Assembly (NCBI GenBank): GCA_963922205.1
Contig: CAWUHX010000007.1
Location: 2,766,877 to 2,830,876, forward strand
Length of the DNA: 64,000 nucleotides
Direction of reading: 5' to 3'
Source of the DNA: Romanomermis culicivorax
Lineage: Eukaryota > Nematoda > Enoplea > Mermithida > Mermithidae
The position numbers were made by a program, and so were the translations under genes. Numbering within the stretch: the first letter of the stretch is position 1; every line of letters begins with the position of its first letter. Below, one piece after another: positions 38,319-61,261 of this stretch. Under the pieces are notes generated by a model. It saw only the letters and a list, made by a program, of their open reading frames with translations. It had not been told where the DNA came from and ran no database searches.

Positions 38319-40785
38319 ATGCGCTTTCGAATTTTGTTTCCTTTCATGACTGTTTGTTTCTTGGATTCCGTCCAAGATATTTCGACTCATGACAAAATAC
38401 AAGGGAAGGTTGACGACAGTGACCGGTTTTGGATTTTTATCGAAAACGTCAACGTCATGGAGTGTGAGGGACGTAAGCAAAAATTGATTTTTCTCTGTTT
38501 TTTATTGAAAGTGGAACTTTTAACCAAATAAGTAATCGTTAGTCTCAGAACGATTTTAATTCTGACGTGCAGACGCGACAGACAGTTTCGATTGTAGAAA
38601 TTGTTACTTGATCCTTGACTTCCAAAAAGTCGTTTCGCATAATTTTTTCAAACTGGTTCCGTTTCACTGAAAATCAGCTTTAGATAAAGAGCTTTTCTAG
38701 TCAAATCGACATGTACTTCTTCTAAAACGTCTCTAAAATATTTCATTTCTGTTCAGCATCAAATCAATTCCAACTTTCGCCCAACCATATCAGTGTCCGA
38801 AATAGAAAAGGCCAAAGCGTCGAATATATCGAGGTGCCAGGCGAATACGCCCTAGCGTTCGATAATATTCGAGTGGAAAATTACTTGCCGAATTTAAGCG
38901 GCGATCTGGCGATTACGCTCCAAATGCCCTTGATCCAATCAAATTTGGCTTATTTCAACGTGCCATACCAAATTGTACCTCAGAAGAAAGTCTTCTTCAA
39001 CGGACATTATTGCGACGACGAATCGGGAGTTGTGACAGATCCAATTGATGGTATTCCTTCATGGTAAATTGCATATATTTTCCTCGAAGGCGCCCTTACG
39101 AAATCTGATGCTTCGACGGCATCAAAAAAAAATTATTCTATAAAGAATTTAAATTTTTATTTGAGATTAACCAAAAATTTGCTTAGTGCGAAATGATTTT
39201 GATATATTTTAAACAGATTCGGTATGTATGTAAACAGCCTAATTTTTAAAATATATTGTCTCCACATCATTTGTATATTACGTAATAAATTGCTTGTAGT
39301 CGCTACTGTGATTTGTGTCGGACGTCATCAAAAGTTGAACACGAACTCAGTTCAAAATTACGACTGGATAGAGGAGAAAGTTTCGATAAAGTTTGTCACA
39401 AAATCGGCCCCGACACCTATTCTATTTGGCGAACGATTTCATTACCTGGTAGGAAGGATCTCGAGAAAGAAATTCAAGAAAAATATCGAACGAAAATTGG
39501 CGCTGACACATTACAACGCTTAAAAACAGGCGTAAGTGTGTATTTAATGTAAAAATCGTTCGTAGGTTATTGCATGACAGTTTTTGGTTGTAATATCGTT
39601 TTTATCTGGACGATTGAACTAAAATGTGATGAGTTCCATGAAAAACAAATTCATGTTTTATTCCTGAGCATCTTAAGATACTAAGGTCGTCGTAAAATGC
39701 ATTTTCATCAGCTTTTTCAAAGGAAATAATTACTACAAAATTACACGGCTTTTAAAAAAATTCATCCAGAAATAACGTCGTGTAGCGTAAAGATTGTTTT
39801 TTTGCGGACGGATTGTTGAATTATTTGTTCATTCCAAAATCGGACTAATGGAGTATCTCGAACTGTTTCGCTTATTATTACAAAGGTTAGTCAGTGTAAT
39901 CATTGAGTGCAGTCAGGTTAGATTTGGTTTATTAGTTTGGTTAGCTTGGATCAAATTTTGGAGAATGAGGACCCCTCAATTGCAGGGGATTTATAGTATT
40001 AGAAAGTCAGCCAATATTGTCAGAAATGTTATCTTTCGAACGGGTGGTGATAAATAATATCCTAATGGTTCGCTCGCTATAAATATTCATCGAAACATGC
40101 AAATATTGAAAGTTCCGTTTACTGTAAAAAATACAGTTCATCAAAAATTACTCCAACTGGTCCGAGTATGAAAATTTTTATAGTCTTGTAATTGTTCTAG
40201 CGCGGTAAGTTCGTTGTCAAACTGAGCGCCTACACAAATCCTGTCAAAGCTTTCTCCGTTGATGCGTTCTTCGAATTGACGCCCGGTTGTGAATGTTGCT
40301 CCAAACGGCTGAGAAATTCCTGTATAATCAATGTTTTCAACTTGGAAGAACTGACTCGCGGTCAAACGGCTCGTTGTGAACGTTGCATGAACGACTACGC
40401 TCGGCAATGCGTCCCAGGCGCCGATTCACACTACCGCGCTGCCTGTTACGTCATCGAATTCAATTTTCGAATGACTGACAAGCGTTCTGATTTGGACGAA
40501 TTTGTCCGACAATTGGAAGCCAATCGTCATTTTTATAATAACCGTACTATGACCTATTACAGTGCTAATCACGGTAATGTCCAATCGGATTACGGTAAAT
40601 ATTTGAGGCAATTTGAAATAACGACGACTACATCGTCATACGATCAACCGGCGGCCGATTGCGATAATTTGGACGAAAGATGTTTGGCGAAAATGAGCGA
40701 TAGCTCGCGAATCTTTTGCAGCAGATACCTAAAATCGAAAGGACCGGCAAAGAAATTTTGCTGTAAGCTGTGTAACGCAAAATGA
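38319..40785 (+). CDS. secreted cysteine-rich protein with ShKT-like C-terminus (4 exons)
   Basis: Exons 38319-38472, 38757-39063, 39300-39531 and 40201-40785 join in phase (C|CA, TG|T, then 0) to give about 425 residues. The N-terminus (MRFRILFPFMTVCFL) looks like a signal peptide, so secretion is likely. The middle has pairs of cysteines (CRYCDLC, CECCSKRL, CERCMNDYARQC) suggesting disulphide-bonded domains. The last 40 residues carry six cysteines (C-x6-C-x11-C-x13-CC-x2-C), close to, but not exactly, the ShKT pattern common in nematode secreted proteins. I do not recognise the central domain and assign no function. The gene starts 570 bp after WDHD1 on the same strand. The start is the first ATG before the hydrophobic segment. 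Confidence 0.82.
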
Positions 40786-44305: not shown

Positions 44306-45085
44306 GATTCTGATAAGTAACGCGGACATTGGGAAGAACCTGATCAGTCATGGTGTTGGAACGCTTACTACACAATTACTGATCAAATTATCTCTGATGT
44401 CGTTAGACCCTCGGATGATAAACCATTTTACATCTTCCTATGATTAATTTCTCCTAACCCGTACATTTGATGCTTCTTTGGAATGCACCTGATACATAAG
44501 GAGCTCGAACATAATTCAATTAGAATCGTTCTGCTTTCCGAACATTTTTTGATTTGGAAAAAAATCTAAATTGATCAGATTCACAATAAATATATTCGAT
44601 TTGTTTAAATTTCGCATTTCCAGGCGGAAGTAGGAAAAATATTAATCAGGATAAAAATTTTTGATCCGGATCAAAAATTTTGGTTCCACTCAGGATCAGA
44701 TTCACATAGAACATATCTGATTTGTCTAAATTTATTATTTCTAGGCGAAAGTAGAAAAAATTTGGTACAGGGTCAAAAATTTTGATTTAGATCAAAAATT
44801 TTGATTTGGATCAAAAATTTGATGCGTTGCATGAAAGTTTACGCCAGGAGAAAAAGATTCGAAAAATTTTGATCCGTACCAAAAAAATTTTTATTTGGAT
44901 CAAAAATACATCATATTGAGGTGATCCGTGATCCGGATCAGGAAAAAAATCCGTGTTAAGTCGTTTTGGCCACGGATCTGGATCGTAATCCGGGGGCATC
45001 CGGATATAAGTCGTTGCAAAACCAACTTCAGAAAACTTACTTTGGTCATGCCGATCCGGATCTGGATCCGCGTAAGACACGCTTT
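42850..45085. mobile_element. TIR element with GATCAAAAATTTT subterminal repeats
   Basis: Left sequence (GGTTTTGCAACGCC; GTGGTCAAAACGACTTTTTCC) is matched in reverse near 44,945-45,025 (GTCGTTTTGGCCAC; CGTTGCAAAACCAAC). Both are followed inward by many GGATCAAAAATTTT motifs. The centre holds a GAGCTGCAGCTGAGTTG-type palindromic block (43,780-43,980) and a (TA)n run (44,277-44,305). No coding frame is convincing. Confidence 0.55.
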
Positions 45086-47916: not shown

Positions 47917-47930
47917 GTAAGTGTGAAAAC

Positions 47931-48837
47931 TGTAACGACCAGATTTGTGTGAGGTACTTTACTTCTAACCAATTAACCAATCGGTCGATACGGCGGGGAC
48001 AAATAACGGGGCGGGGGCGCTGGCGTACGGTTACAAATACGGGGCGATAATATACGAACAATCGACGGTCGCTTGAACGTCGAATACAAAACGGGGGCGG
48101 CGCGGTTGCTTGCAAATAAAAATACACGACACGGTTTAATTGCTTTCGAAGACGGTTGCTTGCAAATAAGGGAACGGCCGCAGATCAAAATAAAACGATT
48201 ACCACAGTCTAACAACTAACTAAATCACGCTTTGCTTCTGCTTTTATACGGCGATTTTGGCCACTCCCTGGGCGTCGCGGGAGGTCGAGCTTCTGTCCAT
48301 CTTCTTCCGCCAATCGTCGTTTCCTGCTACGCTTTTTATGCTTTCTTAATTACGCCTCTCTAATGCTTTTCTGGTACCGTATGCTTTCTGTGCTTCACTT
48401 GCTTTCTACGGTGGGCTTGGCCACACCTCTGTGCTTCTGTGCATGCTTCCTGTATCGGTTTCTCTGTATACACATGTTTTGTGGGGCCGCCGCTACTGTT
48501 ACACTTGAGACTACTGTACGGCGGGGCTTCTACGTATTTTACTGTGTGCAGGTGTTGTTTACGATTTTTACGGGGAATTACGGTAGCTGTGGAATGTGTA
48601 GTTTAGTGTAGGTTCTAGGGGAACAGCTGCCGTTTGTGCAAATTAATTGGGGCGTCTTAATTGGGCTACCGGGGTGTGAACGGATCAAAATAAAGTACTT
48701 CACGTAATTTTGTAGGAATGTTTGGGTGTGAATCCCAGACATCCTTGAGACGATTAAAAATAAAATAATATCTAATAAATGTCTATCACATACAGTATGC
48801 TACATATTTACAGTACTGCTTTAGCAGGTACGTTACA
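47931..48837 (-). repeat. 3' LTR of the retroelement
   Basis: 907 bp, matching the 5' LTR at nearly every position. TATAAAAG lies at 48,248-48,241. Directly preceded, in element orientation, by the polypurine tract. Confidence 0.92.
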
Positions 48838-48850
48838 TTTCCCTCCTTCC
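48838..48850 (-). promoter_or_regulatory. polypurine tract
   Basis: GGAAGGAGGGAAA in element orientation, immediately before the TGTAAC start of the 3' LTR, where plus-strand DNA synthesis is primed in LTR elements. Confidence 0.88.
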
Positions 48851-48868
48851 GGAGTTGAACATCCTCAT

Positions 48869-51800
48869 TCAAGGCTTTCGAGGTTGAGGAGGGGCGGTGG
48901 TAGATTCAATAGTTGCTTTCCGAGGGTAGAAAGTGGTTGTTTCGTTTACATGCACTGTAAATGCGATATTCTTATGAGGGTGTTTAAGTGTAACGTTGGG
49001 GTACATGAAATTCGTAACTGTATAGGGTCCGTTTTGGCGAGGGAGGAATTTGGGAGTCAGCCCTTGTTTACACAAATGATTTTTGTAGAGAATAAGATCA
49101 CCTGCCTTGTAATGTATGTTCTGAGCATGCTTGTTATACTGACGGGTATAGTGGGCTTGGGCTTTTTGCAAACTTTTCTGCACGGTTGAGAGTGCTTCTG
49201 TGAAATGCGATTTTACACAAAGAGGGTAATCGTCCAAATCAACCATGTAGGACGTGGGGAAAAAATTTAAAGCTGCATCTGATGGCAGATTAGCTTGCCT
49301 ACCGTGGAGTAATTCAAATGGGGGATACGAAGTGCTATCATTTTTATGAATGTTGATCGAAAAAACGGCATACGGGAGATAAGTATCCCAATTAGTGTGA
49401 TTTGAATTGATGTACATGCGGATACGGGTGGCTAGGGTTTGGTTGCAACGCTCAACTTCTCCATTGGCAATGGGATGGTATGGGGTAGTGTGAATTTTCT
49501 GAGTATTACATAAACTGGTGATCCGTGAGAAGAGATCGGATACAAAATCGGAGCCACGATCACAATGGATGAGTTTCTGGGACCCATGACGGCAAACAAT
49601 TTTGGTTACGAATAGCTTGGCAATAGTGGCTGCAGTGATGTCAGGGGTGGGGAATGCCTCCACGTACTTTGTGAAATAATTGATGAAAACGACAATGAAT
49701 CGGTTGCCGTCTTCAGTGAGGGGTAACGGTCCCATGCAATCAACACCAACTCGATCAAAGGGACCAGTCGGCTGAATTGGTACCAAGTTTGCATGTACTT
49801 TGTGCCTAAGAGCTTTCTGTGTCTGGCATGGGTGGCAAGTTTTGCAGTAACGTTTGATATCACGGCTCATTTGGGGCCAAAAATATTTCTGTCTGAGCAA
49901 GTGTAAAGTTTTCCGGGCCGCAAAATGACCTGTGAACTTGCTGTCATGATGTGAGGCGATGAGATGCTGGACTTGCGACTTGGGAATGTATAGTTTTGCC
50001 TGTTTGTCGACTATACGGAAGAGAATATTTTGATGCACTGCGAATTTGATAAGGGTAAGGGGGTGTTTTTGGGCGATTTTCGCTAAAATACTCTTGACAG
50101 TTGGGTCAGTGCGTTGGAGTTCGGCGAAGTTTTTCTGTTGCTCTTCTTCTTCAGTTGCTTCGGCTTCCAAAACTGAATTGATAGATGATATTTCGGGGCG
50201 GGTTTCTAATTGGTCGATGTCAAAGGATTGTTTTGCTGTCTGTGAGGGGAATCGAGAAACTGCATCTGCGTTGCGGTTAGCAGTGCCTTTCTTAGGGCGA
50301 ATGTCTAGCTGAATACCGGAGAGGGCTAATCCCCAACGGGCAATGCGAGGGGACGGGTTTTCCTTTTGTAAGACTGCCTGAACTGCTGTGTGGTCAGTGT
50401 GTACAATAACATGTTGCTGGAAAAGATAAGGGCGGAAATACTTGACAAATTCGACTACTGCAAGGGTTTCCAACTCAGTGATTGGGTAGTTGCGTTCTGC
50501 GGGTTTTAGTGTGCGGCTCCCAAAAGCAATGGGGCGATCCTGACCTTTACTATCTAGCTGACTGAGAATGGCGCCGATTCCGAGTTTTGAGGCGTCAGTT
50601 TGCAGAATAAACGGTTTTGTGAAGTCGGGGTGCTGCAGTATTGGGGCATGAATGAGTAATTCTTTTAGCTTAGTGAATGCATTTTGCTGTTCAGGGCCCC
50701 AGGAAAATTCTGAGTTCTTTTTGAGTAGCGATGTGAGTGGGCTAGAAACTTGAGAGCAATTCGGGATGAATCTGCGATAATACGAGGGTAGGCCAAGGAA
50801 TGACTTAACTTCTCTTGAGCTTTTGGGTGTGGGTATGTCATAGATGGCCTGTACCTTATGGGGATCTGGTGAAATGCCTTGCTGAGAAATGACGTGGCCT
50901 AAGTATTGGACCTGGGGTTGGCAGAATTTGCATTTTTGTATATTGAGTTTAAGGCCTGCTTGTGAGAATCGGGCAAGAATAGTGTCTAAACGTTCCAGCA
51001 TTTGGGCATGGGAGTCTGCGAATACCAAAACATCGTCGAGATATACAAGGCATGTGTTCCATTGCAGACCCGAAAGAATAACATCCATTAACCTTTGGAA
51101 GGTGGCTGGGGCATTGGTGAGTCCAAAGGGGAGGTAATTGAATTGATACTGGCCAGCTGAGCAATTAAAGGCCGTTTTTTCTCTGTCTGCTTGTGCTATG
51201 GGAATGGAATAGTATGCGTTGGATTGGTCAAGGGACGTAAAATATTTCATTCCACGGAGGGTGTCTAGAATTTCGTCTATATGGGGTAAGGGGTAGGTAT
51301 CTTTTTTGGTGACTTTGTTGAGGCCTCTAAAATCAATGCATAAACGATGGCCTCCATCTTTTTTGGGGACTAGAACTGTATTGGTACACCATGGAGAATT
51401 GCTTTGGCTTATGACACCTGCTGCTGCGAGTTGCTCAACTTCTGCTTGTATGATTTGCTTTTCTTTTGGGGAAGTCCGATAAAGTTGTCTACGTACGGGT
51501 TGGGAGCCATTGGTGTCAATTGTATGAGAAACTAGGGTGGTTCTGCCTACGTCCATTTTGGATTTAGCATATAATGTAGGGTACTTCGATAGGGCGCGTA
51601 GGAGTTGCATTTTCTCGGTTTCTGTGAGGTCACTGGAGGTTAAATTGACATTTTCTTTTAACCATGTGAATGTATCAAAACGGTTGGGCTGGTTTTGCGT
51701 TGAAGGGGTTAGATTAGTGGGAGCATTTTGTTTTGGGATGTAACATGAGACTGTACCAATGCATGTTCCAGGATAAAGAATTTGAGCTGTTTGCTGTGTG

Positions 51801-52339
51801 TTTAGGACCGATATGCGTATGCGACTGTTTTGGTTTTCAGAGATACAAGCTGCGAAATGGACTTTGGGATTCTGTTTGGGTTTTGGGGTGAATTCAAGCT
51901 GTTTGACCTGTAAGTACGATTTGGGCAAGGGGACAGTAAATTCGGTTACTGTACGGGGTGGTAATTCTAATTTCTCATCCAAATAAGTTCCACCACGAGT
52001 TGAAAGAGGGCTATATTCTAGGCCATCACAAGGTAGTATAACATTGCCAAATTTGACCTGTGATTTTTGATTGTTGATAGTGTATTCCAAAAATGGACTG
52101 AGAAAGTTTTTGCCTAGAAGGATGTCTGCTGTGCAATCTTTTTGGACATGGACCATGATTGTTTCCTGGATTGTTTGGGCTGTCACTGTGACGAAAGTGG
52201 TCCCTACAAAGTGAATTGGAAGATTATTTGCTGCTTTTGCTTGGACTAGCGGGGGTTTCATGTCTAACTGTAAAAGTTGAGCGATCCGGGAATCAATGAG
52301 TGAGTAAACTGCACCAGTGTCAATCATGCCTTTTGTCAT
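48869..52339 (-). CDS. pol: Pol polyprotein: protease, reverse transcriptase, RNase H, integrase
   Basis: 1,156 residues from the first ATG. The same frame is open 38 codons farther upstream, to the env stop, and that stretch looks like the first protease strand. Protease DTG is at residues 7-9. RT has LPFGLTNAPATFQ at about 405 and the YLDD active site at about 433. RNase H has LQTDAS at about 578 and a later HTDHTA. Integrase has an HHCC zinc finger (HHDSKFTGHF to CKTCHPC, about 798-840), the D-D-E triad (VGVDCMG, HCDRGSD, GEVERC) and a C-terminal GPY motif (NGPYTV). RT-RNaseH-IN order is Ty3/gypsy-like. No frame breaks. Being last in the element, it cannot be made by the usual gag-pol frameshift, so its expression is an open question. 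Confidence 0.95.
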   Translation of the reverse strand: MTKGMIDTGAVYSLIDSRIAQLLQLDMKPPLVQAKAANNLPIHFVGTTFVTVTAQTIQETIMVHVQKDCTADILLGKNFLSPFLEYTINNQKSQVKFGNVILPCDGLEYSPLSTRGGTYLDEKLELPPRTVTEFTVPLPKSYLQVKQLEFTPKPKQNPKVHFAACISENQNSRIRISVLNTQQTAQILYPGTCIGTVSCYIPKQNAPTNLTPSTQNQPNRFDTFTWLKENVNLTSSDLTETEKMQLLRALSKYPTLYAKSKMDVGRTTLVSHTIDTNGSQPVRRQLYRTSPKEKQIIQAEVEQLAAAGVISQSNSPWCTNTVLVPKKDGGHRLCIDFRGLNKVTKKDTYPLPHIDEILDTLRGMKYFTSLDQSNAYYSIPIAQADREKTAFNCSAGQYQFNYLPFGLTNAPATFQRLMDVILSGLQWNTCLVYLDDVLVFADSHAQMLERLDTILARFSQAGLKLNIQKCKFCQPQVQYLGHVISQQGISPDPHKVQAIYDIPTPKSSREVKSFLGLPSYYRRFIPNCSQVSSPLTSLLKKNSEFSWGPEQQNAFTKLKELLIHAPILQHPDFTKPFILQTDASKLGIGAILSQLDSKGQDRPIAFGSRTLKPAERNYPITELETLAVVEFVKYFRPYLFQQHVIVHTDHTAVQAVLQKENPSPRIARWGLALSGIQLDIRPKKGTANRNADAVSRFPSQTAKQSFDIDQLETRPEISSINSVLEAEATEEEEQQKNFAELQRTDPTVKSILAKIAQKHPLTLIKFAVHQNILFRIVDKQAKLYIPKSQVQHLIASHHDSKFTGHFAARKTLHLLRQKYFWPQMSRDIKRYCKTCHPCQTQKALRHKVHANLVPIQPTGPFDRVGVDCMGPLPLTEDGNRFIVVFINYFTKYVEAFPTPDITAATIAKLFVTKIVCRHGSQKLIHCDRGSDFVSDLFSRITSLCNTQKIHTTPYHPIANGEVERCNQTLATRIRMYINSNHTNWDTYLPYAVFSINIHKNDSTSYPPFELLHGRQANLPSDAALNFFPTSYMVDLDDYPLCVKSHFTEALSTVQKSLQKAQAHYTRQYNKHAQNIHYKAGDLILYKNHLCKQGLTPKFLPRQNGPYTVTNFMYPNVTLKHPHKNIAFTVHVNETTTFYPRKATIESTTAPPQPRKP

Positions 52340-52453
52340 TAATTTGCCGTTAAGTGTGATTGGAATATGAGGGGTATGTTTTTCAGGTACATTTTGGGGT
52401 GGCTTATTTGATGCAGATTGGTGAATTTGATTAATGAGTTCGATTGCAGGAGT

Positions 52454-52456
52454 TCA
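52454..52456 (-). other. single in-frame UGA between env and pol
   Basis: Env ends at a UGA (52,456-52,454), followed by ACTCCTGCA, and the same reading frame continues without another stop into protease. Suppression of this one codon would fuse Env to Pol. Alternatively splicing or internal initiation makes Pol. Confidence 0.85.
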
Positions 52457-54337
52457 GGGGGTATCAATATCGACAAGGACGTATTTCTGCTGCGTTTGTG
52501 CCCCACGACGATTAGCTAATTCTAAGAGAGCATGGCCGAATGATGGGGGAATGGTCTCATGTAAATGTCTGTTGTTTGATGGTATTTCGTATGCATGTTC
52601 GTTTGTGGCATGATGCTTTGGAGAGGGGAAATATTTTCGAAGAACGAGAAACGAATAAAAGACGCCTGCAATAACTACAGTAATAATGGCGAGATTGATA
52701 ATGATTTGCAGGGGTCCTTTGAGTAAATTGTTTAATCCATCCGTGAGACTTTGGGTAGTACCAGTTATTACATGTTCTATGCCTTGACTGGCGCCAGAGA
52801 GTGTATTTCCGAGTGCTTGGCCAGTGCCTGAGATCATGTTGTAAACTGTATCGGAATTGAGAGACATTTGGGCGGTGTAATTGACGAGTTTTTTGACAAT
52901 GTTTTCGAGTGTGTGAGTTTTGTAAATGTATTGTTTCAAAAAGAGTAAGTTGGTTGAAATAGTTGCAAGTTGATCATGAAAAATGGCGGGTGTATTAAAA
53001 TGAAAAAGGGAGAAATTTTGGTTCCAGACGATTTCTAAAGGTAAATTTGTGACATGCGGGGATCCTGTTTCACTTACCCATGTATTATTCTGTTTGTAAA
53101 GGGCTACATGCATGTGATGGCAGTCAACGGTTTGTGGGAAAGGGGTCAAATCGTTGCCACCTGGATTTGAAAACATGAGTTCAGTTCCTACGAGAATGGG
53201 CAAAAGTTTGTAGCATGTTTGGTTGATTTTATGGTTGTAAAAGACTTTGGATGCGTTTACCTGCTTGCAGGGCCAGACTGTGAGGGCTTCTCCTGTAAAT
53301 TCTGCTATGATGTCGGTTCTCTGTAGGAATGCACGCGCTCCAAGGGTTGCATCAAGACGTAAAATTTGCCATATGAGATCAAGGTGACGCTGTGCCTGTC
53401 TGCATAATTCATTCCATACATTTTTGAAATTTTGAATTTCGAATTCCTGTATTTTGTCTGCTAGATAGTTTAGTTTTGCATTGATGGGTTCAAAATCATC
53501 AAAATCGTATAGTGCAGTATGAGTTTCGTTGTTTTTTGGGGTTAAAAATGCGTTACGATGTGGGGTGCTTTTGTCTAATTGTACAATAATGCCTTGTTCG
53601 GTTAGAATGCTATCTTGGATTTCTGGGCAATTGGGGTTCGAAAAAACTGTATTTTTAACCGAGAATGCACCTTGTAGTTCTTCTATTATCATGTGAGTTT
53701 GTGTGAGTTTGATGGGATGTGTGTTTTTGTATTCGAAGGGGCATAAGTTTTCAAATGCTGTTTCATTCCAGATAATGGATCCGTCCGCTGTGACACAATG
53801 ACCTGATGTCGGTTTGCATGACCCTAGGTCACCTAATGTACCTGTCATAGATTTTCCATTCCAAGATGCTATTTGTCCTATTTCTATGATGACGTTAGTG
53901 ACCGAGGTACAATGGTCTGTACAACACCATGTGTATTCTACGCTTAGGGAGTTATTTGTTGACCAAAATCCTGGTTGGGTTTCGTATAATTTTTGACCGT
54001 TGTGTTCTTTGTCTATAACGATTGCCTTACAAACATGTGGGGTTAGATTTTGCATTTCGGTTTGGTCGAAGACAATACCTTTTGATCCAAAAAATCCTGT
54101 ATTAGTACAAATTTTGCGTTTGCGAACACTGCATTTGTATGCGTCTGTAATGTGGGGCTTAGTGGAGGGGATATAGATTTTTCCGAATGTTTGTACGGGT
54201 TTGTCTACTGTGGAAGGGGGCATGCATGATACAAGTTTCGGTATGCTGATTGAGTGACCGCTCAATGAAGTTCCACACATCTGAAATTGGGCACTACACG
54301 ATGTGGGGATTATTATACAAAGAAAAATACAAAACAT
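52454..54337 (-). CDS. env: envelope-like class I membrane glycoprotein
   Basis: 627 residues. The start shows a signal peptide (MFCIFLCIIIPTSCSA), then a cysteine-rich ectodomain with about a dozen N-glycosylation sequons, a Ser/Gly/Thr-rich amphipathic stretch (LSGASQGIEHVITGTTQSL), one transmembrane segment at about 544-566 (IIINLAIITVVIAGVFYSFL) and a 61-residue cytoplasmic tail. This is the layout of a viral fusion glycoprotein. The family is uncertain: the cysteine pattern reminds me of glycoproteins of negative-strand RNA viruses (class III), but this is a guess. It starts inside the gag end (-1 frame) and its stop UGA is in frame with pol. No frameshift or premature stop is present. 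Confidence 0.82.
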   Translation of the reverse strand: MFCIFLCIIIPTSCSAQFQMCGTSLSGHSISIPKLVSCMPPSTVDKPVQTFGKIYIPSTKPHITDAYKCSVRKRKICTNTGFFGSKGIVFDQTEMQNLTPHVCKAIVIDKEHNGQKLYETQPGFWSTNNSLSVEYTWCCTDHCTSVTNVIIEIGQIASWNGKSMTGTLGDLGSCKPTSGHCVTADGSIIWNETAFENLCPFEYKNTHPIKLTQTHMIIEELQGAFSVKNTVFSNPNCPEIQDSILTEQGIIVQLDKSTPHRNAFLTPKNNETHTALYDFDDFEPINAKLNYLADKIQEFEIQNFKNVWNELCRQAQRHLDLIWQILRLDATLGARAFLQRTDIIAEFTGEALTVWPCKQVNASKVFYNHKINQTCYKLLPILVGTELMFSNPGGNDLTPFPQTVDCHHMHVALYKQNNTWVSETGSPHVTNLPLEIVWNQNFSLFHFNTPAIFHDQLATISTNLLFLKQYIYKTHTLENIVKKLVNYTAQMSLNSDTVYNMISGTGQALGNTLSGASQGIEHVITGTTQSLTDGLNNLLKGPLQIIINLAIITVVIAGVFYSFLVLRKYFPSPKHHATNEHAYEIPSNNRHLHETIPPSFGHALLELANRRGAQTQQKYVLVDIDTP

Positions 54338-56097
54338 CGGCCAATAGAATGTTTTAGTGGAGGCGGCGGGGCACTGTATGTTTTCGTTGTGGCCGGTTTG
54401 GTGTTAGGGCTTTTGGTGTTGTCGTTTTGTGGTTTTGCGCTGGGGGGGTGGCCAGTTTGCAATCTGAACTTCTGTAAAACTTTAGAAGTTGAGTTATGGG
54501 ATGGGGTTTGGACTTGCTTACTTGCGGGGGTTGGTAGTAGTGTTTGGCGGGGGCGAAATTGGTAGGGTTCGGGGGTCAGGCCATGGAGAAGGGATAACAA
54601 GTTGCGGCCTGTTTTCGACGGGGTTTCGGGGGCGGTGGGCGGCGTTGTGTCTTGCTTTCGGGGGATCTTGTAGCCTACGGGGATGGTGGGCGGCAATTTT
54701 TCGATTTTTGCAGCTTCAGGCGTGGGGGATGGCGACATGGCGCACCAATCGGGTACGTCCAGATCAAGGACGTATTCGTCACTGCGGCGGTGGGTGTTGG
54801 GCATGATAGTTCCTAAAGTAGTCTGAGGGCCGTTAGTTATGGCGGGTAATTTTGAGTAGAATGCGGGGTCATCAATGTCCATGAGGGGTTGGGGTTGCCT
54901 GTACTCAATGCAATTTTGAATATTACGACTCTGCTGATTTGGACAATACCTGCTTGTATGACCTCTCTGCTTGCATATGAAACATTGAAAATTGGAGTAG
55001 GGTTTTGAAAGGCAGTTATCTGATCTATGTCCTGTTTGGGAACAGTGGATGCATCGGCTTTTACAATCACGTGTACTGTGATTGTTTCGGAAACAGATTT
55101 CACATGATTTTCGGGTGCCTACTGATTTACAATTACGAGCTACGTGTCCGATTTGTCCACACTGGAAGCATGTGGGTTGCCTAGGGGTGGTATTGTTCCT
55201 GTAAGCATTATTCCTACTGTAAGTGTTGTTACTGAAATTGTTGTAGCTACTCTGTTGTGGGGGTTGAGGTTTTTGTTTGATCTGCAACTGTAAATCTTTT
55301 ACTTGTTGTTCTAACTGATGCAAAAGATCCTGTTGGTCTGTATTTTTGGTTAGGGAAAAGATGGGTTCGGGTTTTGGGGGTATGAAGGGAAGGACGTTAG
55401 ATTTTAACTCATTTCTAAGAATTTGCTGTTCAATGTAAGCTGCTTCGTCTGACATTTCTTTTAAAGTTGCGAATCTTCTATACTTAATTGCTTCTCTGAT
55501 TTCGCTTTGCATGCCTTCTACAAAGAGGGGTTTTATGATCATTTCTCGTGCCTCTGTGTTAAAGTTAGGGTAGGCGAGGGTTGGGAGATGTTCTAGATCA
55601 AATAAGAATTCCGTTACTGTTTCTGAACGCTTTTGTTTTCTTTCGCGTAAGAATTGTTGATGTAGCTCATTATCTCTATTGTTTGGGAAAAATGCCTGTA
55701 ATGCGACTTTATACTGCTCGTATGTGTGGGGAGGGTTTTCGGAATTGGCTAAGCTTTTGAATTTTGCTAACGCGGCTCCTCCTAAATGAATTTCTAAACA
55801 TGCCAACTTTAACTGTACGTCTGTATCTTTCATGCCTTGGAGTGCCATGAATTGTTCTAATCTTTTGTTCCATTCACCAAAATGTTGGGTCACGCCGACC
55901 GTGAATACTGTAGGTTTCGCGTAGAAATTGTTTGCCATGTTATTACGAATGTTTGCTGTTCTTAGATCGTCTATTAGGGTAGGGTTTACTGTATTCTGAT
56001 TCAATTGTGTGCGTAGGGTACGAAAATGTTCTGAAAACAAATCGTTTATCTGTTCTCTAACGATTTCTCCTAAATGATCTTGCGTTTGGTGGGTCAT
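54313..56097 (-). CDS. gag: Gag polyprotein with four CCHC zinc knuckles
   Basis: Gag forms the particle and packages the RNA. From the ATG at 56,097 it has about 594 residues. The frame is open farther upstream to 56,382, but that passes through the primer-binding site into the LTR, so I chose the first ATG followed by Gag-like sequence (MTHQTQDHLGEIV). A retrotransposon-Gag core lies in the first third (FGEWNKRLEQFMALQG, FLRERKQKRSETVTEFLFDL). Four knuckles follow: CFQCGQIGHVARNC, CEICFRNNHSTRDC, CIHCSQTGHRSDNC, CFICKQRGHTSRYC; most gypsy Gags have one or two. The C-terminal third is Pro/Thr-rich. Its end overlaps the start of env by 25 nt in another frame. There is no protease at its C-terminus. 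Confidence 0.93.
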   Translation of the reverse strand: MTHQTQDHLGEIVREQINDLFSEHFRTLRTQLNQNTVNPTLIDDLRTANIRNNMANNFYAKPTVFTVGVTQHFGEWNKRLEQFMALQGMKDTDVQLKLACLEIHLGGAALAKFKSLANSENPPHTYEQYKVALQAFFPNNRDNELHQQFLRERKQKRSETVTEFLFDLEHLPTLAYPNFNTEAREMIIKPLFVEGMQSEIREAIKYRRFATLKEMSDEAAYIEQQILRNELKSNVLPFIPPKPEPIFSLTKNTDQQDLLHQLEQQVKDLQLQIKQKPQPPQQSSYNNFSNNTYSRNNAYRNNTTPRQPTCFQCGQIGHVARNCKSVGTRKSCEICFRNNHSTRDCKSRCIHCSQTGHRSDNCLSKPYSNFQCFICKQRGHTSRYCPNQQSRNIQNCIEYRQPQPLMDIDDPAFYSKLPAITNGPQTTLGTIMPNTHRRSDEYVLDLDVPDWCAMSPSPTPEAAKIEKLPPTIPVGYKIPRKQDTTPPTAPETPSKTGRNLLSLLHGLTPEPYQFRPRQTLLPTPASKQVQTPSHNSTSKVLQKFRLQTGHPPSAKPQNDNTKSPNTKPATTKTYSAPPPPLKHSIGRCFVFFFV

Positions 56098-56320
56098 TCT
56101 TGGTTTACGATGGGATTTCTGCTTAAATGCTTCAATTTTTGCTTCACGCTGTATTCGTTTAAATGTATTGCTTAATGTCTCGTTGGAGGGGATTTCCAGT
56201 TTGCTTTCTACGAATACTGTCTTACTGTAGGAAATGATTACTACTGTATTATCTAATGCTTCTAAATGCCCGGATAAGAGTACACCTAATTGGGGGCAGG
56301 GAGTTCCAGTGGTTAACGTA

Positions 56321-56335
56321 ACGGTACGGTCACCA
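56321..56335 (-). promoter_or_regulatory. candidate primer-binding site
   Basis: Five bases inside the 5' LTR the element reads TGGTGACCGTACCGT. TGG at this place is the usual start of a tRNA-3'-end complement. I could not assign the tRNA from memory. Confidence 0.55.
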
Positions 56336-56340
56336 AAATA

Positions 56341-57253
56341 TGTAACGACCAGATTTGTGTGAGGTACTTTACTTCTAACCAATTAACCAATCGGTCGATA
56401 CGGCGGGGACAAATAACGGGGCGGGGGCGCTGGCGTACGGTTACAAATACGGGGCGATAATATACGAACAATCGACGGTCGCTTGAACGTCGAATACAAA
56501 ACGGGGGCGGCGCGGTTGCTTGCAAATAAAAATACACGACACGGTTTAATTGCTTTCGAAGACGGTTGCTTGCAAATAAGGGAACGGCCGCAGATCAAAA
56601 TAAAACGATTACCACAGTCTAACAACTAACTAAATCACGCTTTGCTTCTGCTTTTATACGGCGATTTTGGCCACTCCCTGGGCGTCGCGGGAGGTCGAGC
56701 TTCTGTCCATCTTCTTCCGCCAATCGTCGTTTCCTGCTACGCTTTTTATGCTTTCTTAATTACGCCTCTCTAATGCTTTTCTGGTACCGTATGCTTTCTG
56801 TGCTTCACTTGCTTTCTACGGTGGGCTTGGCCACACCTTTGTGCTTCTGTGCATGCTTCCTGTATCGGTTTCTCTGTATACACATGTTTTGTGGGGCCGC
56901 CGCTACTGTTACACTTGAGACTACTGTACGGCGGGGCTTCTACGTATTTTACTGTGTGCAGGTGTTGTTTACGATTTTTACGGGGAATTACGGTAGCTGT
57001 GGAATGTGTAGTTTAGTGTAGGTTCTAGGGGAACAGCTGCCGTTTGTGCAAATTAATTAGGGCGTCTTAATTGGGCTACCGGGGTGTGAACGGATCAAAA
57101 TAAAGTACTTCACGTAATTTTGTAGGAATGTTTGGGTGTGAATCCCAGACATCCTTGAGACGATAAAATGTGAAAATAAAATAATATCTAATAAATGTCT
57201 ATCACATACAGTATGCTACATATTTACAGTACTGCTTTAGCAGGTACGTTACA
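56341..57253 (-). repeat. 5' LTR of the retroelement
   Basis: 913 bp. In element orientation it contains TATAAAAG (56,658-56,651), a likely TATA box, about 300 nt before the LTR's inner edge, and an ATTAAA (about 56,550-56,545) that could serve for polyadenylation. It differs from the 3' LTR at 56,839 and 57,059 and by an indel near 57,164-57,172. Confidence 0.92.
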
Positions 57254-58271
57254 AAACTAAAAAGTCGTCGAAGAATGAAAATCTCCTCGATTCTCACGTT
57301 GACTATCCATATGGATGTTGTCATGGAACCAATCAAAATTGGGCAGTCTTTTGAACCGCCCATTCCAGTCCACAGGTGCCATACTGTGCGGTTTACTGTA
57401 AATTGTCGGCATGGGCAGCTTATGTTTTGCATACGTTTGGGCTTTTTCATAATTTTATGTGGATTATCGAAAAGGGCCCTGCTGCTTGCACAGGCCCATT
57501 GTTGGATATTTTTGTAATTGTATGTGTGTGTAGATTTTTGGTGTTTCTCCAAATGACGGTTAAACAATAGAAAAAGATGAAAACAAAGTACTAAATGAAG
57601 GTAACTGAAAAATAAAGTACGTTACATTTCAGAAAAGACGAAGAACCCAAAATAGAGGTCGCAGTTATCAGAAAATGTAGTTATAAGGTGGTTTTCATAC
57701 TCTAAGTCCTGCAACTCCCTAGCAGTACATGAATTTCAGTAATTTTTTTCGGCAGGTAGAAGACACCGTAAACTATCTACTGTATAGGGAATTTTTTGAT
57801 GCTTCTGTGCTTATTGCGATATATATGATGATTTTTGTAAAAAAATGATGTCTCTCAAAATTTGATGTTTCGAGCACTACTGTATTCTCAATACATACTT
57901 TACAATAATAAATCCTACGGTACATTGTGGCCAATTTGTTGGCCTAATATTGTGTAAATTTTCAGAACACGATGTGTGACGTACCTAAACTTGCAAAAGC
58001 TGAAAAAGTGTATGTCAAAAATCAAATAAAATCGAAAATTGTCATTTTTTGTCTTACTGTAGCTATGCGAGTTTTGATTTTCAGACGAAATGAATATCCT
58101 TTTCGTTCCTAGCGCATCAAATTACACCACCAAATGTGTGACTTTCAGGTGGGGTTAATTTTTCACTTATCACAACTCTCTGTTATGAGAAGCTGAATTT
58201 TCTCAGATACTGTGTCGCCGGGTCCAGATCCACGGGTGGATCCATGTTTTAGTCATACCCTTCATTTTCAG

Positions 58272-59104: not shown

Positions 59105-59299
59105 TTTTATTGTTGGTTACTTCAAGCAGTTTGAAAATTCATATAAAAAATTCATAGAAAAATTCATAACTTCTCACAGATGAAAATGAAGGTTTACTTT
59201 TGGCTATGTTGTTTATAGTCTTTACTGTACTTTACTATCCGCGATTTTTCAACGAAGTGTTTCCGAGCATACCTGTAAGAGGTCTGAGCCTGTTGGGGG

Positions 59300-59540
59300 C
59301 ATACCTGTACTTGGGGGGGGTTGGGGGGGGGGGACCCCCCCCCCAACTCGGCCAACCCTATACCCAAAATCATTTTCCCCCCCCCAACCCCCCCCCCAGT
59401 TGGGAAAAAATTAAAAAAATTTGTCAAAAAGTGTATGTTTTTTGGCCTTTTTTGGGAAAAATTTCGACTTTTTCCTACCCCCCCCCCCAAAATTTCGGAT
59501 TTACCCCCCCCCCCAACTGGTCGGAGGTCTTACAGGTATG
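59300..59540 (+). mobile_element. nested CATACCTGTA MITE (level 2)
   Basis: Ends CATACCTGTACTTGGGG and GGTCTTACAGGTATG, exact 8-bp duplication GTTGGGGG (59,292-59,299, 59,541-59,548). 241 bp. Confidence 0.85.
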
Positions 59541-59563
59541 GTTGGGGGGGGGGGAGGGTAAAC

Positions 59564-59750
59564 CATACCTGTACTTGGGGGGGCGTTGGGGGGGGAACTG
59601 TACCCAAAATCATTTCCCCCCCCAACCCCCCAGTTTGGAAAAAATTAAAAAAATTTTCGAAAAAGTGTATGTTTTTTGGCCTTTTTTGGGAAAAATTTCG
59701 ACTTTTTTCTACCCCCCCCCCCCCAACTGGTCGGAGGTCTTACAGGTATG
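59564..59750 (+). mobile_element. nested CATACCTGTA MITE, short form (level 2)
   Basis: Same ends, exact 8-bp duplication GGGTAAAC (59,556-59,563, 59,751-59,758). 187 bp, lacking part of the C-run body of the 241-bp copy. Confidence 0.87.
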
Positions 59751-59780
59751 GGGTAAACCCAAAGTTTTGGGAGTGGGGCA

Positions 59781-60811
59781 ACACCGTTTTTCTTCCTCGA
59801 AGATTTTTTCCACATGAGAACCGGACCCAAAATTTTTTTCCTCATTTTCCAAAAATTTTCCACATTTTTAAAAACGCTTATAATGTGGCTACGGATGCTT
59901 TTTTATGCATTTTAGGAGCATACCCATGCATTTTGTTGTATTTGGAGTCAGAAACCTTCAAAAATGAGAAAAAAAATTGAGAAAATCCTAGTTATATTAG
60001 CCAAAATGAGCTCATGAAGAATACATTGGTGTTCTACAGGAGCGGGTGAAGCATTAACGTATAACGATAGAGTTTTCAGGAATTTATTCGCTATTAACAT
60101 TTCTATGGCTCTCATTAGAATCATCTAATTTTATTTAGTCCTTCGTCCGGCGCGGAGCGCCGGAAAAATTTTTGGATTTCCACTTTCTACAACGCTGGAA
60201 ATTGAACCTTCACAACGTTGGGAAATAAATTAAAATCCGACTGATGAAGTATAATCTGCTTCCCATTCCGGCGCGAAGCGCCGGGAAAATTTTTCAGTTT
60301 TTATATTCTAAAACGCTGGAAAATAAATCTCTCCAACAGATATTCATAAACAGAAGTTCGAAAATCGCAGTCTAGAATGATGTCTTCAATTTCTATCTTC
60401 AATAAACGCAAAAGTTCAGGTTGCAGGACGTTTAAAAAATTCCAAACATCGAGAGGAAAAATTGAGAAAATTGATGAAAAATCTCAATATTGGCCGACAT
60501 AATTGACTGTTAACGATTAGAAAATGAAACGAGCCAACTTGATTGATAGAAACTGTTGAGCATTAATTAGTAAGTCGAAGTAGATATGCTAATGGCCGCG
60601 CCTGATAGAAAATAGTCAAGATTGTACCCGTGACCGGCGCGAAGCGCCGGAAAAATTTTGGATTTTGACCCTTTTAAGTCCACCAAAACGCATCTTTTCG
60701 GTTTGGAATTCCCCAAAATTTTTTCCTCAATGAGAACCATACCCAAAATTTTTTTCCTCATTTCGAAATTTTTTTCCTCAAAAGACCCCATTTGAGGAAA
60801 AAAAACGGTGG
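59781..60811 (-). mobile_element. nested CACCG-ended element (level 2)
   Basis: Ends ACACCGTTTTTCTTCC and GGAAAAAAAACGGTG, flanks GTGGGGCA (59,773-59,780 and 60,812-60,819, the latter overlapping the next insertion). It contains three CCGGCGC hairpins (60,148; 60,268; 60,634). The interior is the reverse complement of the element at 6,156-7,126 but the termini differ. Confidence 0.7.
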
Positions 60812-60817
60812 TGGGGC

Positions 60818-61066
60818 ATTACCTGTACTTGGTGGGGGGGGGGGGGGGTTGGGGCCTCCCCCCAACTTGGCCAACCCTGTACCCAAAATCATTCAACCCC
60901 CCCCAACCCCCCTCCCAGTTTGGCAAAAATTAAAAAAATTTGCAAAAAAGTGTATGTTTTTTGGTTTTTTTTTGGGAAAAATTTCAACTTTTTTCTACCC
61001 CCCCCCCCCCCCAAAATTTCGGATTTACCCCCCCCCCCCCAACTGGTCGGAGGTCTTACAGGTATG
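60818..61066 (+). mobile_element. nested CATACCTGTA MITE (level 2)
   Basis: Ends CATTACCTGTACTTGG and GGTCTTACAGGTATG, flanks TGGTGGGG (60,810-60,817) and GGGTGGGG (61,067-61,074), 7 of 8 identical. It inserted at the junction of the preceding element and the host. Confidence 0.78.
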
Positions 61067-61261
61067 GGGTGGGGGTCCCAACATTTCCAAAATTTTGGGG
61101 AGAGGGTCGAAAAAACTCCAGAAAAGTCGGAAAAATTTCGAAAATTTTCCCAATAACGGCCAAAAAAAAGCCACTTTTTTCCTATTTTTTTCCTATTTTT
61201 TCCAAGTTTGAGAGGGGGGGTTGGGTATGGGGTTGACGAAGTTGGGGATGGGGGTCCCAAC

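What the first reader, a model, noticed from the sequence alone, without database searches (positions are those of the whole stretch)
47931..57253. LTR retroelement with a gag-env-pol gene order
Read in its own direction the element is LTR-gag-env-pol-PPT-LTR. The envelope-like gene (signal peptide, glycosylated cysteine-rich ectodomain, transmembrane anchor) lies between Gag and protease. Known envelope-bearing LTR elements and retroviruses that I can recall place env after pol. The near-identical LTRs (two substitutions and one small indel in about 910 bp), 4-bp duplication, intact PPT and three unbroken frames argue that this order is functional and recent, not an assembly accident or decayed rearrangement.
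Basis: partly seen in the sequence, partly recalled or inferred. Interest (0 to 1): 0.88.

Follow-up and report, generated by a model that had tools for sequence, protein, structure and literature searches.

The report
Retroelement encoding one Gag-Env-Pol polyprotein
A young, many-copy retrovirus-like element carries its virus-entry protein gene in the middle of its genome, and most copies examined read capsid, entry protein and replication enzymes as one long protein, an order that the standard description of this virus family does not include.

Summary
On the minus strand lies a complete Ty3/Gypsy-type LTR element (LTRs, 4-bp duplication, candidate primer site, polypurine tract) with gag, then a membrane glycoprotein gene, then protease-RT-RNaseH-integrase. 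It is not an isolated rearrangement: the same genome holds at least 99 places with this env or its junction to pol. In 41 of 50 copies read, Gag zinc knuckles, Env and protease share ONE frame, so the family's coding plan is a Gag-Env-Pol polyprotein of about 2,409 residues. The window copy, with three ORFs, is derived: gag and env are out of frame and a stop parts env from pol. Env matches Pfam PF24664, a Monjiviricetes fusion glycoprotein (E 6.7e-18). Env and the start of pol show equally strong purifying selection (pN/pS 0.052 and 0.059). Three independent public proteins carry Env fused to protease-RT, and pol relatives form one clade (SH-aLRT 100). Best reading: the chain crosses the membrane twice, with Gag and Pol in the cytosol and Env outside. 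RNA, protein and topology evidence is lacking and the host is unidentified. The ICTV profile of Metaviridae places env after integrase, so this is a new variant of a known kind.

The parts
56341..57253 (-). 5' LTR (913 bp, starts TGTAACG, ends GTTACA)
47931..48837 (-). 3' LTR (907 bp)
57254..57257 (-). target-site duplication GTTT, 5' side
47927..47930 (-). target-site duplication GTTT, 3' side
56318..56335 (-). candidate primer-binding site (starts TGG, 5 bases inside the LTR); primer tRNA not identified
   Evidence: role inferred from position
54313..56097 (-). gag from its first in-frame ATG: capsid-like region and four CCHC zinc knuckles; in this copy it is out of frame with env
   Evidence: the same first ATG in 19 of 20 other copies
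54290..54349 (-). hydrophobic stretch in the env frame; in copies where gag and env are one frame it would be an INTERNAL signal peptide (inferred role)
52454..54337 (-). env from its ATG: fusion glycoprotein with signal-like start, ectodomain, TM and cytoplasmic tail, then TGA at 52454-52456
53012..53524 (-). PF24664 Monjiviricetes fusion glycoprotein match in env
   Evidence: E 6.7e-18
52637..52705 (-). transmembrane anchor of env (predicted by hydropathy)
   Evidence: 2.42 over 19 residues
48869..52453 (-). pol, same frame as env: protease (52097-52363), RT (50888-51370), RNaseH (50318-50701), integrase (49472-49987)
   Evidence: best solved relative Ty3 Gag-Pol, E 6.2e-122
48838..48850 (-). 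polypurine tract GGAAGGAGGGAAA next to the 3' LTR

Best explanation
A Ty3/Gypsy-type LTR retroelement whose lineage holds a PF24664 fusion glycoprotein (the group to which chuvirus glycoproteins belong; that link is recalled) between Gag and protease, so that the unspliced RNA can be read as one Gag-Env-Pol polyprotein of about 2,409 residues. SHOWN: gene order, single frame in most copies read, a conserved hydrophobic segment at the Gag/Env boundary, one further hydrophobic segment after the ectodomain, a tail running straight into protease, strong purifying selection on env and pol, recent insertions, and the same Env-protease fusion in independent relatives. INFERRED: Gag stays in the cytosol; the hydrophobic segment acts as an internal signal peptide; Env is pushed into the ER lumen and cut from Gag by signal peptidase; the TM anchor stops transfer, so Pol is made on the cytosolic side as an extension of the Env tail. 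The element's aspartic protease then frees RT and integrase inside a budding particle, and Env fuses it with the next cell. Flavivirus and alphavirus polyproteins are laid through a membrane in this way (analogy from general knowledge). It would put Gag, Env and Pol at one site in equal amounts, without splicing or frameshifting. The window copy itself no longer has the single frame.
For: Own-genome env search: 68 scored copies at 97-100% identity over env; 41 of 68 lie in an open frame of at least 2,460 residues and 53 of 68 in one of at least 1,843. Of 50 copies read, Gag knuckles and Env share a frame in 42, env is open in 49, Env and protease share a frame in 47, all three in 41. The first in-frame ATG is the same in 19 of 20 copies. 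LTR pairs: 15 of 20 measurable; 4 of 15 with no difference; 11 of 15 with perfect 4-bp TSDs, all 11 different. NG86 over 231 pairs of 22 copies: pN/pS env 0.052, start of pol 0.059; gag part 0.23 over 222 pairs. P0003, P0008 and P0013 run Env-TM-protease-RT in one ORF; P0009 starts with a TM segment just before protease. RT-RNaseH tree of 119 rows: window + P0007, P0008, P0009, P0010, P0013, P0014 form one clade, SH-aLRT 100. PF24664 is over its cut-off in the window Env and in five of five env-bearing relatives.
Against: No RNA, ribosome or protein data: an open long frame does not prove that it is translated whole. Retroviruses make far more Gag than Pol (general knowledge), so equal amounts would be odd. 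The env ATG inside the signal segment could serve separate translation. The 50 copies read come from the 68 scored of 4,266 first-look candidates, ranked by env protein similarity: this favours intact copies and low pN in env. Pol was not ranked and gives nearly the same ratio, but no unbiased sample was read. In P0013 the called ORF starts near mature Env without a signal segment, so gag may be in another frame there; the DNA of P0003, P0008, P0009 and P0013 was not seen, and none of these proteins includes gag. P0007 lacks the Env ectodomain. Structure prediction of Env failed (pLDDT 37 and 39), so a class III fold was not shown. The window copy and 8 others of 50 do not pass the one-frame test.
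Confidence: 0.7

Rival explanations
1. The order is real, but proteins are made from several RNAs: env is excised by splicing to give Gag-Pol, or a subgenomic RNA starting in the signal segment gives Env-Pol. The long frame is kept open only because the products share it.
For: P0007 is one ORF with Gag, a signal-like and a TM-like segment about 40 residues apart, then protease-RT-integrase; it lacks the Env ectodomain, as a spliced RNA or an env-deleted family would. The env ATG in the signal segment is present in the 30 copies read there.
Against: 41 of 50 copies keep all three parts in one frame, which splicing would not require at the gag/env boundary. Whether P0007 comes from DNA or RNA is unknown. 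Splice sites were not analysed.
Confidence: 0.2
2. The window copy's own layout is the functional one: gag, a -1 frameshift into env, then read-through of TGA into pol, as in retroviral Gag-Pol recoding.
For: In the window gag and env overlap in different frames, and env and pol are in frame across one TGA. The LTRs are nearly identical, so the copy is young.
Against: A stop at this site is present in 2 of 30 copies (L009, L038). Copies with identical LTRs and long single frames exist.
Confidence: 0.04
3. Misassembly or an isolated rearrangement moved env into the middle.
For: None found beyond the rarity of the order.
Against: At least 99 places with this env or its junction to pol; 11 of 15 measured copies have their own perfect 4-bp TSDs; the same Env-protease fusion occurs in three independent public proteins.
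Confidence: 0.01
4. Env is a captured passenger with no role in transfer between cells; the element moves as an ordinary retrotransposon and the glycoprotein is used otherwise, for example against related viruses.
For: Fusion and particles were not shown. Solo chuvirus glycoproteins are discussed as possibly counteracting viruses in mosquitoes (PMC7642597, passages).
Against: Env is under as strong purifying selection as pol in copies of the element and is kept inside the coding frame of divergent relatives.
Confidence: 0.05

Closest known systems
Ty3/Gypsy elements (Metaviridae), incl. Errantivirus
   Same: LTRs, candidate PBS, PPT, TSD of 4 bp, CCHC Gag, PR-RT-RH-IN order; best solved relative of pol is Ty3; some members carry env (PMC7879559)
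   Different: Env lies between Gag and protease and, in most copies read, in one frame with both; ICTV's profile puts env downstream of integrase (PMC7879559); Env is PF24664, not the baculovirus type named for Errantivirus in PMC12440569
Anakin (BEL/Pao element with a chuvirus glycoprotein, mosquitoes; PMC7642597, passages)
   Same: Captured glycoprotein of a related viral group inside an LTR element
   Different: Pol here is Ty3-like. [quoted passage not shown] the gene order of Anakin itself I did not establish from the passages read
Jingchuvirales-derived glycoproteins in arthropod genomes (PMC10084718, passages)
   Same: Related glycoproteins, sometimes beside Gypsy fragments; also found in Nematoda
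   Different: That paper reports no clear evidence of capture by Gypsy; here capture is complete and the gene is under selection
Cer1 of C. elegans (PMC10309623, passages)
   Same: No stop between gag and pol
   Different: No env inside that frame in the passages seen
Flavivirus/alphavirus polyproteins (recalled, not searched)
   Same: Capsid, internal signal, envelope, TM and further proteins in one chain threaded through the membrane
   Different: Replication by RNA polymerase; here reverse transcription and integration

Membership tests
Ty3/Gypsy LTR retroelement (Metaviridae) | LTRs with PBS and PPT, short TSD | tested here: met
   the PBS tRNA was not identified
Ty3/Gypsy LTR retroelement (Metaviridae) | PR-RT-RNaseH-IN order and Ty3-like RT | tested here: met
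   (Ty3 Gag-Pol best, E 6.2e-122)
Ty3/Gypsy LTR retroelement (Metaviridae) | env, where present, encoded downstream of integrase (ICTV profile PMC7879559) | tested here: not met
Errantivirus | env after pol, envelope likely from baculovirus | tested here: not met
   order differs; Env matches PF24664 and weakly glycoprotein B, no baculovirus envelope family at E up to 0.1
Anakin (BEL/Pao) | BEL/Pao-type pol | tested here: inconclusive
   Ty3 is the best solved relative, but no BEL/Pao reference was compared
Monjiviricetes fusion glycoprotein (PF24664) | match over the curated cut-off | tested here: met
   64.4 bits, cut-off 27; residues 294-464 of the 649-residue frame
Monjiviricetes fusion glycoprotein (PF24664) | class III fold | tested here: inconclusive
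   AlphaFold models of pLDDT 37 and 39, too poor to search
Infectious retrovirus-like element | enveloped particles that pass between cells | not testable with these tools
   only selection on env

The most novel reading that the evidence does not exclude
A previously undescribed lineage of reverse-transcribing elements that lays its whole proteome through a membrane as one Gag-Env-Pol chain, so that Pol enters the enveloped particle as the tail of the fusion protein rather than as a Gag extension.
Probability: 0.5. Interest if true: 0.93.

Novelty: new variant of a known kind. Interest (0 to 1): 0.87.

Why it matters
The described place of env in this family is after integrase (PMC7879559), and the retroviral plan regulates Gag, Pol and Env separately by frameshift, read-through or splicing (general knowledge). 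A many-copy, recently active family with Env in the middle of one frame points to another solution. It raises a testable question: can a reverse-transcribing element build a particle from equal Gag, Env and Pol, and can Pol be packaged through Env? It also documents a complete PF24664 glycoprotein inside a Ty3/Gypsy element, where a survey of arthropod genomes saw no clear capture by Gypsy (PMC10084718).

Tried and rejected
Misassembly or isolated rearrangement: rejected by many copies with their own TSDs. Programmed frameshift plus TGA read-through as the family mechanism: rejected because the stop is in 2 of 30 copies and the gag/env frames agree in 42 of 50. Viral contigs (IMG/VR): three scans, none with a relative. 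Structure of Env: two AlphaFold jobs with 4 and 6 sequences, both too poor, so no fold search was made. Searches were weakened by my own alignment, which carried the RT part of P0003; their extra hits P0004-P0006 and the RT structures say nothing about Env. The window Env alone matched no solved structure at E up to 10. Whether P0003 belongs to the same pol clade is open: trees place it outside on a long branch, but holding it inside is not rejected (AU p 0.268), so one or two origins of the order remain possible. The RT loci L001-L008 of this genome gave no tblastn match to this pol, rechecked at E up to 10. Four other ORFs of the window gave no Pfam match and the window no Rfam match, so the host was not identified; the nearest named Env is from the nematode Romanomermis culicivorax. 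My notebook says 14 LTR pairs were measured and gives 25 of 30 for a one-frame count made by eye; the outputs are what I report.

Rows dropped before counts: one search used 22 of 30 fetched copies (left out: frame-shifted copies, one with a one-codon offset, those with a stop in codons 250-1600, one of a tandem pair); stop codons were skipped, and pairs with pS over 0.25 or pN over 0.2 were dropped (9 of 231 gag pairs). One search used 60 rows: the seven in question plus every second other row, after 10 long-branch or outlying rows were taken out; 5 of 20 LTR pairs could not be measured; 50 of 68 copies.
Full report
1. The element. On the minus strand of 47931-57253 lies a complete LTR element. 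LTRs of 913 and 907 bp differ by 3 substitutions and one 6-base gap; GTTT is duplicated on both sides; a polypurine tract abuts the 3' LTR and a TGG-starting candidate primer site lies five bases inside the 5' LTR end. Three ORFs follow. Gag has four CCHC motifs and a Retrotrans_gag match just under its cut-off. Env matches PF24664, the fusion glycoprotein of Monjiviricetes, at E 6.7e-18, and glycoprotein B faintly (0.0059). Pol has protease, RT, RNaseH and integrase in that order, and its best solved relative is Ty3 Gag-Pol (E 6.2e-122 over RT to integrase). So the order gag-env-pol is there.

2. Not an accident. Searching the window's own genome (359 Mb, 595 contigs) with Env gave 68 scored copies, 97-100% identical over env, a lower bound since 4,266 places passed the first look. 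A 611-base DNA probe across the env/pol junction gave 40 scored matches of 965 first-look candidates, all 40 over the full 611 bases. 9 of these fall in the 68, so at least 99 places are known; not all need be complete elements, since two of them lie only 1.9 kb apart on contig C16. Of 20 copies whose LTR ends I fetched, 15 LTR pairs could be measured: 4 show no difference, 10 show two or fewer, and 11 have perfect 4-bp TSDs, all different. These are separate, recent insertions.

3. One frame. In the window, env is in a different frame from gag, and a single TGA parts env from pol in the same frame. The other copies showed that this is not the norm. Of the 68 copies, 41 lie in an open frame of at least 2,460 residues and 17 in one of exactly 2,486. 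In 50 copies read at both junctions, Gag knuckles and Env share a frame in 42, Env is open in 49, Env and protease share a frame in 47, and all three in 41; the full-length test is stricter, since 31 of the first 50 listed copies have a frame of at least 2,460. A stop between env and pol is present in 2 of the first 30 copies. The first in-frame ATG is the same in 19 of 20 copies read, and in the four of these with a 2,486-residue frame it lies 77 codons in, which leaves 2,409 residues. At the Gag/Env boundary a hydrophobic stretch is nearly the same in 30 of 30 copies read; that it ends in a signal-peptidase-like site is my reading. Env has two hydropathy maxima, this one and a TM segment about 530 residues on, and the protease active site follows the TM by about 106 residues.

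4. Selection. Among 22 copies (231 pairs), pN/pS is 0.052 for env and 0.059 for the start of pol, and 0.23 for the part of gag read (222 pairs). The copies were found by ranking on Env protein similarity, which pushes env's ratio down; pol was not ranked and gives nearly the same value. Env is therefore kept about as strictly as the polymerase, though no unbiased sample was read.

5. Relatives. The Env search found three proteins: P0001 from the nematode Romanomermis culicivorax, and P0002 and P0003 recorded under bacterial MAG names. The pol search listed 120 of 2,807 proteins. P0007-P0010, P0013 and P0014, six of its first eight, are 46-54% identical; the other 114 listed are at most 40%. 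P0008 and P0013 carry Env, TM, protease, RT and RNaseH in one ORF, and P0008 also integrase; P0003 carries Env, TM, protease and the start of RT; P0009 starts with a TM segment directly before protease. P0007 runs Gag, two hydrophobic segments about 40 residues apart, then protease to integrase in one ORF: the Env ectodomain is absent, by deletion or splicing. A tree of 119 RT-RNaseH rows puts the window and these six in one clade (SH-aLRT 100). P0003's shorter RT falls outside, but a tree holding it inside is not rejected (p-AU 0.268).

6. How it most likely works. The single frame, the hydrophobic segment at the Gag/Env boundary, the TM anchor and the tail running into protease suggest a chain that crosses the membrane twice: Gag in the cytosol, Env outside, Pol in the cytosol. 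Signal peptidase would free Env's N-terminus and the element's protease would free Pol. This is inference; no cleavage and no topology was tested. Splicing or internal translation could still supply separate products (rival 1).

7. What is known. [quoted passage not shown] Anakin (PMC7642597, passages) is a BEL/Pao element with a chuvirus glycoprotein. A survey of Jingchuvirales glycoproteins (PMC10084718, passages) found no clear evidence of capture by Gypsy. Bdelloid elements carry ORF3 genes, some env-like, downstream (PMC5408684, passages). The term 'gag-env-pol' was found in no paper of the library. The listings showed, by title and start of abstract of at most 20 papers each, no element of this order, and one search listed none. 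Subscription papers and most preprints are not held, so this is not proof of absence. Also seen: PMC12440569 (abstract and passages), and PMC10309623, PMC11952523, PMC13269885 and PMC8556966 (passages).

8. Verdict. New variant of a known kind, interest 0.87.

Noticed in passing
L057, L058, L077 (G000:C122:526073-544044) and G000:C26:1369756-1380093: Two pairs of env copies lie head to tail about 8.4 kb apart; in the C122 pair the 3' LTR place of the first coincides with the 5' LTR place of the second, as in tandem proviruses sharing an LTR. The C26 LTRs were not fetched.
   Followed up: partly
P0002, P0003: Env and Env-pol fragments of this kind are filed as Gammaproteobacteria and Desulfobacteraceae MAG proteins; they look like eukaryotic retroelement contamination of bacterial bins.
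   Followed up: no
P0007: Relative with Gag, signal-like and TM-like segments and Pol in one ORF but no Env ectodomain; either a family that lost its fusogen while keeping a membrane hairpin, or a spliced RNA.
   Followed up: partly
L009-L038, first third of env: Synonymous difference in the first third of env (pS 0.055) is about half that of the rest (0.14, 0.11) while pN stays low; could be recombination or an overlapping RNA signal.
   Followed up: no
window 59170-61211 (+): Three plus-strand open frames beside the element repeat a proline-rich unit with NWSEVLQVW or GRRSYRYG; they look like dispersed repeats rather than genes.
   Followed up: no
window 40201-40785 (+): Open frame of 194 residues, cysteine-rich, without Pfam match; possible host exon.
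   Followed up: no
window 44573-44906: Cluster of overlapping tandem repeats (periods 19, 21 and 121).
   Followed up: no
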